IMG/VR virus record: IMGVR_UViG_3300046373_000131
Location: 1-48,385 of that record
Direction: 5' to 3' (one strand)
Length of the DNA stretch: 48,385 nt
From: a virus
Shown here: one piece after another, positions 8,354 through 9,766 of the stretch
Position numbering within the stretch: position 1 is the stretch's first letter
Layout of the letters: each line of letters opens with the position of its first letter
Program-made: the position numbers and the translations under genes
The notes under the pieces: generated by a model
Told to the model about the DNA's origin: nothing
The model's database searches: none
Seen by the model: only the letters and a program-made list of their open reading frames with translations

Positions 8354-8540
8354 CCTCGACCTGTTCAAGCGAAAAGCGAAGGCGGTCAAGCGCGCCGCCG
8401 GCTGCACCCACGCCGAAGCCCTGGAAACGGTGGCCCGGGTTTACGGCTTTGCCCACTACCACGAGGCCCACCGGTTCTATGCTAGACTGGCCGCCTCAAA
8501 TCAGGAGGAATGCCCCGATGGCAGACCGCAAGCTAGTTAA
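8328..8540 (+). CDS. small protein with AK..KR/GFAHYHEA motif (70 aa)
   Basis: ATG 8328 lies inside the end of the previous gene in another frame. Residues 11-50 read FKRKAKAVKRAAGCTH..ALE..ARVYGFAHYHEAH, a pattern I know from the N-terminal part of a family annotated as glyoxalase-superfamily-related (PF20066-like) and from small plasmid and phage proteins. It probably forms a helix-turn-helix-like unit. The function is unknown. The 3' end overlaps the next gene. Confidence 0.6.
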   Translation: MTRAPHPASLDLFKRKAKAVKRAAGCTHAEALETVARVYGFAHYHEAHRFYARLAASNQEECPDGRPQAS

Positions 8541-8727
8541 GACCTTCACCGAAGGCGCACGGGTCGCAAAGGTCTACCAGGCCGTGGAGGAATCCGGGCC
8601 GCCTTGGTTCGTGACCGAGTATTTCGAGGGTGGCGAGGAGGCCGGCCTAACTCCGTGGTCCACGCGAGAGCAGGCGGACGGTGACGGCGAAAGGTGGGTT
8701 GACGCCAAGCCCGAGCAAGCCCTATAG
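8518..8727 (+). CDS. small hypothetical protein (69 aa)
   Basis: ATG 8518 is chosen because CAGGAGGAA at 8503-8511 is an excellent ribosome binding site. The product starts MADRKLVKTFTEGARVAKVY and looks like a small beta-rich protein (WFVTEYFEGGEEAGLTPW). A TAGACT box at about 8483 followed by GGCCGCC may be an internal promoter, but its -35 is poor. The stop codon TAG lies inside the -10 of the promoter for the downstream RNA region. Confidence 0.7.
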   Translation: MADRKLVKTFTEGARVAKVYQAVEESGPPWFVTEYFEGGEEAGLTPWSTREQADGDGERWVDAKPEQAL

Positions 8728-8728
8728 T
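8699..8728 (+). promoter_or_regulatory. sigma70-like promoter for structured RNA and tRNA
   Basis: TTGACG (8699-8704), 18-nt spacer, TATAGT (8723-8728), then GCGCCCA. No gene begins for about 690 nt downstream, so this promoter appears dedicated to the non-coding RNA and tRNA-Gln. Confidence 0.8.
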
Positions 8729-8734
8729 GCGCCC

Positions 8735-9307
8735 ACGGCCAGTAGAAGGGCGCAACGCAAGCAACTGAGCCAGGCGCATGCCACGGGGCGGGGACGGAAA
8801 CCTGCCTTAATGCGCCGCCCAGGGAGTCCGGACCGCTGCGCCGGGGGCGATATGCAGCACGTTTTGAGCAGTGACCCCGGGGCCTGTGCGCTCCCCGAGC
8901 CCCTGAGCGGGTAAGTCGGGTTTACTAAGTGTTCTCCGTCTAGCCCACACCTACGGGCTGGCTGCCGGGGTCACTGCTCAAAGCGTCCCTACCGCTAGTA
9001 GCTGTGCCGCAGTTCCCGGAGCATTGTGCCTCGCGGGTCGGTTGCGAACGGGTAGGGGCGCCTCTATTTTTAACGGTACGGGCCGGTTGGATCGGCAACC
9101 ACGGCGAACAGTCGACTTTGACGGAGTAATTACCCTGAGGGTCGTCAACTAGCGTAATGGGAAGGGAGTTCGATTCTCCCCGTACCGAGCACCGGAGAAG
9201 GCCGAAAGGCAGAACTAAAACGAGGCGACTCAGCGCGCCTACCCTAGATACGAACGACCGGACGCGCCGGGTAATCAGGCCTAGGGGGACTCCGGTGGCA
9301 CCGTTTT
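8735..9307 (+). ncRNA. candidate large structured RNA (~570 nt) upstream of tRNA-Gln
   Basis: No plausible gene fits here, but helices are dense. GGCGCAT (8773-8779) pairs with ATGCGCC (8810-8816), enclosing GGCGGG/CCTGCC. A 22-bp helix joins 8859-8880 to 8965-8986 (18 perfect pairs, then a U-G pair and three more), and its loop holds AGCCC/GGGCT and CCCGA/TCGGG hairpins. CGGTACG (9074-9080) pairs with CGTACCG (9181-9187), enclosing a T-arm-like hairpin at 9164-9180. CACCGGAG (9190-9197) pairs with CTCCGGTG (9290-9297), enclosing GCC-GAAA-GGC and CCCTAG/CTAGGG. It starts at its own promoter and ends 1 nt before tRNA-Gln. Size and tRNA linkage recall ROOL/GOLLD-type phage RNAs, but I cannot assign a family. 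Ends are approximate. Confidence 0.75.
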
Positions 9308-9385
9308 AGAGGGTTCGCCAAGTCAGGTTAAGGCATGGCGCTTTGACCGCCACACGCCCAGGTTCGAATCCTGGACCCTCTACCA
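9308..9385 (+). tRNA. tRNA-Gln (anticodon UUG)
   Basis: A full cloverleaf with encoded CCA. Acceptor AGAGGGT (9308-9314) pairs with ACCCTCT (9375-9381); discriminator A 9382; CCA 9383-9385. The D-arm is GCC/GGC with a GG-containing loop. The anticodon stem TGGCG/CGCCA encloses CTTTGAC, with anticodon TTG at 9343-9345. The T-arm is CCAGG/CCTGG with loop TTCGAAT. The D-arm resembles bacterial tRNA-Gln. It reads CAA, which is uncommon in this GC-rich genome. Confidence 0.93.
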
Positions 9386-9414
9386 GTTCACCCCAACGAA
9401 AAGGAAATACCGCT

Positions 9415-9687
9415 ATGCAAATCCGTCGTTTTCTCTGTTCTGCCCTCCTGGGCGTCCTTGCCGTCTGCAGTACCCTGGCGTTTGCGGTAGAGCGCCCGGT
9501 AGCGTACGCCTATGCCAGTGTGGGCAGCTTGCACGGCGCCGAGGTGGCGAAGTATGACGCGACCCTGGCGGAGTGGCGCCAGTCAGTCGAGCAGGCCTTG
9601 GGTGTGAGTACCGGCGGCCTGCGTGCCGAGGGCCACCACCTGGTGCAGGCGTCGATTCTGCCGCAGCGCGAGGAGTACTGGCTGTAA
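9415..9687 (+). CDS. small secreted/periplasmic protein with signal peptide (90 aa)
   Basis: ATG 9415 follows AAGGAAATACC. Residues 1-24 (MQIRRFLCSALLGVLAVCST and flank) form a classical signal peptide: basic start, hydrophobic core and LAFA before a likely cleavage. The mature ~66 residues contain a helical stretch (AEVAKYDATLAEWRQSVEQ). The body matches no family I know. It is just downstream of tRNA-Gln and followed by a terminator. Export to the periplasm suggests a role at the cell envelope; this is inference. Confidence 0.75.
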   Translation: MQIRRFLCSALLGVLAVCSTLAFAVERPVAYAYASVGSLHGAEVAKYDATLAEWRQSVEQALGVSTGGLRAEGHHLVQASILPQREEYWL

Positions 9688-9737: not shown

Positions 9738-9766
9738 TTGACAGGTATAAAAGGCGTCCCTATACT
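9738..9766 (+). promoter_or_regulatory. strong sigma70-like promoter
   Basis: TTGACA (9738-9743), 17-nt spacer, TATACT (9761-9766), then GCGCGCATACCGAA. Bases 9730-9780 are identical to 48214-48264, so this promoter and part of the terminator are duplicated in the genome. Confidence 0.9.

What the first reader, a model, noticed from the sequence alone, without database searches (positions are those of the whole stretch)
8735..9307. Large structured RNA (~570 nt) with its own promoter, directly upstream of tRNA-Gln
A consensus promoter (8699-8728) is followed by ~570 nt with no credible gene but many helices, including a 22-bp one (8859-8880 with 8965-8986), a GAAA-capped hairpin at 9201-9210 and three multi-branch domains. 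The RNA ends at the first base of tRNA-Gln, so RNase P could release its 3' end. Large ornate RNAs next to phage tRNAs (ROOL, GOLLD) are known, with cage-like multimers reported. I cannot match this one to a family by eye, so it may be a divergent member or a new class.
Basis: partly seen in the sequence, partly recalled or inferred. Interest (0 to 1): 0.87.

Follow-up and report, generated by a model that had tools for sequence, protein, structure and literature searches.

The report
New tRNA-disguised phage RNA family
Next to a phage tRNA gene lies a structured non-coding RNA, a tRNA look-alike joined to a conserved folded core, that belongs to an apparently undescribed RNA family found in many unrelated bacterial viruses; its job is unknown but can now be tested.

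Summary
Module A (8735-9068) follows the promoter and is shared only with phage TPWB-08. Module B (9074-9303) is a tRNA-like structure without a usable anticodon loop (9074-9187), joined by a 2-nt linker to a ~110-nt core (9190-9303). In TPWB-08 two tRNA genes lie between A and B; in other relatives B directly follows a tRNA gene.

The core is a real, widespread family. In 28 distinct phage members 97.4% of proposed pair cells are standard pairs, 22 of 30 pairs show two-sided changes, and none of 500 shuffles matches this. RNAalifold finds the same fold unaided. No Rfam 15 family matches. A circularly permuted type carries the same signature inside a tRNA-like body, where the anticodon arm would be; it occurs in lambdoid phages (562 of 5426 E. 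coli genomes match) and Listeria phage B025. I found no publication.

Best reading: a stable RNA processed like a tRNA (a natural 'tRNA scaffold') whose core acts in trans on an unknown, probably host, target. Family and fold are shown; processing, stability and target are inferred. No transcript data were available.

The parts
8699..8728 (+). sigma-70-like promoter TTGACG-18-TATAGT
   Evidence: same elements in TPWB-08
8735..9068 (+). module A: separate structured RNA unit, shared only with TPWB-08; ends approximate
   Evidence: no other relatives by an 18-base string
8859..8880 (+). module A long helix, 5' arm (pairs with 8965-8986)
8965..8986 (+). module A long helix, 3' arm
9074..9187 (+). 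module B, tRNA-like structure: acceptor stem 9074-9080/9181-9187, D-arm 9083-9095, long arm in place of the anticodon arm, T-arm 9164-9180
9122..9135 (+). conserved hairpin CGGAGTAATTACCC in the long arm that replaces the anticodon arm
9188..9189 (+). 2-nt linker between acceptor stem and P1 (N-G in nearly all type I members)
9190..9303 (+). conserved core: P1 9190-9197/9290-9297, P2 9201-9203/9208-9210, P3 9223-9228/9235-9240, P4 9242-9249/9279-9286, P5 9258-9261/9267-9270
9216..9222 (+). invariant single strand UAAAACG before P3
9272..9278 (+). nearly invariant strand UAAUCAG between P5 and P4
   Evidence: also in the permuted type
9308..9385 (+). tRNA-Gln (anticodon TTG) directly downstream

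Best explanation
Module B is a member of an undescribed family of phage non-coding RNAs built like a tRNA scaffold: a tRNA-like structure that cannot decode is fused to a conserved core of about 110 nt (helices P1-P5). It is made as one unit of a phage tRNA-type transcript. Host tRNA-processing enzymes, above all RNase P at the 5' end of the tRNA-like part and at tRNA-Gln, cut it out, and the tRNA-like part protects it (inferred). The mature RNA of roughly 230 nt is stable, and its core, with the invariant strands UAAAACG and UAAUCAG, docks onto a conserved partner, most likely a host factor of RNA metabolism or translation, late in infection (inferred; partner unknown). Module A is a second RNA unit of the same transcript.
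For: Core: 28 distinct members, 97.4% of cells paired against 71.1% in shuffles, 22 of 30 pairs with two-sided changes, 213 such cells against 57; same fold from RNAalifold; four divergent members not used for the model have E below 1e-10. tRNA-like part directly 5' of P1 in about 26 of 28 members, several above Rfam's tRNA cut-off, with two-sided changes in acceptor and T stems among the window's nearest kin. Unit sits in tRNA arrays like a tRNA. The permuted type has the core where a tRNA has its anticodon arm, with P4 and P1 pairing above all 1000 shuffles and D-loop/T-loop complementarity above shuffles: the tRNA shape is under selection apart from decoding. It lies behind pR'/Tr' ahead of the holin gene in lambdoid phages, a late position. 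An engineered tRNA scaffold, with the cargo in place of the anticodon arm, is processed precisely and escapes degradation in E. coli (PMC3753655). Phage-specific: 1 of 399 Pseudomonadota genomes, the centre itself.
Against: No transcript, processing or partner data. Type I tRNA-like parts lack RCCA behind the acceptor stem (they have N-G-C), which should weaken RNase P recognition. The Vibrio members lack a clear tRNA-like part. No shared neighbour gene points to a pathway, and no rRNA complementarity was found.
Confidence: 0.5

Rival explanations
1. The core is a ribozyme that cleaves itself or trims the neighbouring tRNA-like and tRNA units of the array.
For: Small core with many invariant unpaired bases and variable helices, typical of ribozymes and aptamers; it is joined to tRNA-like parts in all architectures.
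Against: No invariant cleavage junction is apparent; the bases at the ends differ between the permuted types; no known ribozyme model matches.
Confidence: 0.15
2. The tRNA-like part is the active part: a decoy that occupies host tRNA-binding or tRNA-cutting factors (for example defence nucleases), and the core only stabilises or displays it.
For: tRNA shape is kept while the anticodon arm is lost; the body changes identity freely while always tRNA-like; HK629 and HK75 keep a tRNA-like body with other inner domains.
Against: The core is far more conserved in sequence than the tRNA-like part; the loss of the anticodon loop removes the target of most known anticodon nucleases; Vibrio members lack a clear tRNA-like part.
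Confidence: 0.15
3. A cis-acting element (leader, attenuator or processing signal) that only controls the surrounding tRNA or late transcript.
For: Lies in late leaders ahead of holin in lambdoid phages and inside tRNA arrays.
Against: No shared downstream gene; no terminator or start-site overlap; lies at different places in different phages.
Confidence: 0.1
4. A cage-forming RNA like ROOL or GOLLD.
For: Phage RNA next to tRNAs; GOLLD can carry tRNAs in its linker (PMC12286853).
Against: About 230 nt rather than about 600-800; no Rfam score; different fold.
Confidence: 0.05
5. Degenerate tRNA pseudogenes or remnants of an integration site with no function.
For: Anticodon arms are degenerate; some members lie in prophages.
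Against: Two-sided compensatory changes in 22 of 30 pairs; the same core recurs in unrelated phages, including 300-kb jumbo phages.
Confidence: 0.02

Closest known systems
GOLLD RNA
   Same: phage RNA of unknown function near tRNA islands; tRNAs sometimes inside its linker; made during lysis (PMC12286853)
   Different: over 800 nt, other fold, forms a 14-mer cage; Rfam model does not score here
ROOL RNA
   Same: phage RNA of unknown function near tRNA islands (PMC12286853)
   Different: much larger, multiple pseudoknots, other fold; no score here
tmRNA
   Same: architecture of the permuted type: tRNA-like domain with a long domain in place of the anticodon arm
   Different: no tag reading frame recognised, no tmRNA call by ARAGORN or Rfam; core sequence unrelated
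T4 stable RNAs C and D
   Same: tRNA-like stable RNAs of unknown function in a phage tRNA cluster; RNA C has a T-arm
   Different: core signature absent
Engineered tRNA scaffold
   Same: foreign RNA carried by a tRNA body that is processed and protected (PMC3753655)
   Different: man-made; here natural, and in type I the cargo hangs on the 3' side of the tRNA-like part

Membership tests
ROOL / GOLLD | match to the Rfam covariance model | tested here: not met
   cmscan of window and of 8500-9500 at relaxed E
ROOL / GOLLD | length of about 600 nt or more in one RNA | tested here: not met
   two separable units; conserved unit about 230 nt
ROOL / GOLLD | symmetric RNA-only multimer | not testable with these tools
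   needs cryo-EM or mass photometry
tRNA | cloverleaf with acceptor, D and T arms | tested here: met
   several members pass Rfam's tRNA cut-off
tRNA | 7-nt anticodon loop on a 5-bp stem and free 3' end | tested here: not met
   loops of 3, 6, 9 or more nt or branched arms; 3' strand runs into the core; window: long arm
tmRNA | match to tmRNA models and a tag reading frame | tested here: not met
   ARAGORN and Rfam make no tmRNA call in window or relatives
T-box riboswitch | conserved T-box bulge UGGNACC | tested here: not met
   window has GGUGGCACC after P1', but most members have GGUAAA there; no Rfam score
New family (this report) | compensatory base changes in the proposed helices | tested here: met
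New family (this report) | stable transcript in infected cells | not testable with these tools
   no RNA-seq available

The most novel reading that the evidence does not exclude
A previously undescribed, phage-wide class of RNA that uses tRNA mimicry as a natural scaffold for a conserved functional core, in circularly permuted forms (core inside the tRNA body, or hung on its 3' side), spanning phages of Gram-negative and Gram-positive hosts.
Probability: 0.75. Interest if true: 0.9.

Novelty: categorically new. Interest (0 to 1): 0.86.

Why it matters
It would add a broad class of viral structured RNA, present in tRNA arrays or late leaders of many phages and in about one in ten E. coli genomes, yet annotated as nothing. 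The tRNA disguise suggests a general way for phages to make stable RNAs, and permuted members in cultivable phages (E. coli CUS-3, Listeria B025) make its function directly testable.

Tried and rejected
ROOL, GOLLD and all other Rfam families: no score. Folding energy as evidence: not significant. Pairing of invariant strands with E. coli rRNA: longest complement 8 nt, within chance. T-box: see membership test. T4 RNAs C and D and K-12 prophages DLP12 and Qin: core absent. Module A: no relatives by an 18-base conserved string, none in plasmids. Model R1 in 299 Pseudomonadota genomes: none (stricter filters and no positive control, so weak evidence). Chance hits dropped: L019, L020, L021, L051, L106, L124 and most of L152-L170. 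Literature: ten text searches found no description; subscription papers and supplementary lists could not be searched. A phylum search was first called with a wrong handle.

Full report
OBSERVATION. No reading frame of note covers the stretch. Rfam 15 gives nothing but the tRNA. Folding energies are not unusual against shuffles, so helices seen by eye were not enough; homologues were needed.

TWO UNITS. A search of named phages found one close relative, TPWB-08, and short core matches in three Vibrio phages and two Pseudomonas jumbo phages (D6, Psa21). In TPWB-08 the promoter and the upstream half (module A) are followed by tRNA-Gly and tRNA-Asp, and only then by the second half (module B) and tRNA-Gln. 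In L012 and L017 module B lies directly behind tRNA-Asp, in L017 again with tRNA-Gln next. So A and B are separate units of a tRNA-type transcript. Module A has a long helix that TPWB-08 keeps in 21 of 22 pairs, four of them through two-sided changes; with two sequences this is suggestive only.

THE CORE FAMILY (TYPE I). Pattern scans of viral contigs plus the named phages gave 28 distinct type I members. The structure P1-P5 holds in 97.4% of cells (71.1% after shuffling), with two-sided changes in 22 of 30 pairs and 213 cells against 57 in shuffles; none of 500 shuffles reaches this, and sliding the partners by 1 to 3 columns drops pairing to 31-48%. RNAalifold predicts the same helices unaided. 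A scan for a G-C version of the first P3 pair found further members. Model R1 finds four divergent members not used for it with E below 1e-10. Conserved unpaired strands are UAAAACG, UAAUCAG and the ACGCG loop.

THE tRNA-LIKE PART. Directly 5' of P1, behind a linker N-G, about 26 of 28 members carry an acceptor stem and T-arm, usually with a D-arm of tRNA consensus; several pass Rfam's tRNA cut-off. The anticodon arm is not usable: loops of 3, 6 or 9 nt, a UUCG-capped arm or branched arms; the nearest to normal is Psa21, a 7-nt loop on an 8-bp stem. In the window's own subgroup it is a long arm with a conserved GGAGUAAUUACC hairpin, and acceptor and T stems show two-sided changes. The acceptor 3' strand runs on into the core, so charging with an amino acid is not expected unless it is cut (inference).

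THE PERMUTED TYPE (TYPE II). Most hits have the same signature in another order: tRNA-like 5' half with D-arm, UAAUCA/G, P4 strand, P1 closed by a variable domain, P2, UAAAACGAGGCG hairpin, P4 strand, T-arm, acceptor 3' strand. This is a circular permutation of type I: the P5 hairpin is replaced by the tRNA body and P1 is closed by a loop. In 61 non-redundant members P4 and P1 pairing exceed all 1000 shuffles (the P1 signal is smaller). D-loop and T-loop are complementary over 5 nt or more in 21 of 53 members against 6.8 in shuffles (one motif, GCUGA, is common among them). It lies between pR'/Tr' behind Q and the holin gene in lambdoid phages, in 562 of 5426 E. coli genomes by near match of all or part of the element (118 genomes with at least 80% of the query), and in Listeria phage B025. 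HK629 and HK75 carry a tRNA-like body with other inner domains at the same place.

DISTRIBUTION. The signature was found in 1 of 399 Pseudomonadota genomes, the centre genome itself, and the type I pattern in 1 of 84,980 species genomes (that hit is a short variant): this is phage property. Carrier contigs range up to 317 kb, and no downstream gene is shared. The window itself is a phage with large terminase, portal and head genes around the locus.

MECHANISM. Shown: fold, family, tRNA-like part, location in tRNA arrays or late leaders. Inferred: co-transcription from 8699-8728, processing by RNase P, stability through the tRNA disguise (the engineered tRNA scaffold works this way, PMC3753655), and a trans-acting role of the core on a conserved partner. 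Pairing with rRNA was tested and not supported. The ribozyme and decoy rivals stay open.

NOVELTY. No Rfam family and no paper found in ten text searches. It may still sit unnamed in a supplementary list that I could not search. The evidence fits a new RNA class rather than a member of ROOL, GOLLD, tmRNA or tRNA, each of which fails a tested defining feature.

Noticed in passing
L008 about 2664-2800; similar in L007, L022, L031, L035: Another apparently structured RNA between tRNAs of Pseudomonas jumbo-type phages, closed by GAAA(C/T)TAACT...AGTTAGTTTC and holding ATAAAACGAG(T/C)C, a possible cousin of the core strand.
   Followed up: no
L171 (HK629) about 420-545; L175 (HK75) about 1035-1165: At the site between Q and holin these lambdoid phages have a tRNA-like body with different inner domains and no core: the inner module seems to be swapped.
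   Followed up: partly
L018:2494-2573 (-): Rfam Proteo-phage-1 RNA (85.7 bits) about 1.2 kb from the type I element.
   Followed up: no
L007:2918-3000; L008:2901-2978: The tRNA-like parts of D6 and Psa21 are called as tRNAs by software (D6: annotated tRNA-OTHER) although their anticodon arms are abnormal; counts of phage tRNAs may include such elements.
   Followed up: partly
L148:909-1047 (-): T4 stable RNA C has a perfect T-arm and acceptor-like end but no core signature; it could belong to the wider set of tRNA-bodied phage RNAs.
   Followed up: partly
window 9738-9766: A second strong promoter-like site (11 of 12, TTGACA-17-TATACT) behind the small gene that follows tRNA-Gln.
   Followed up: no
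window 9415-9687: Small protein with a likely signal peptide directly behind tRNA-Gln; no PHROG match.
   Followed up: no
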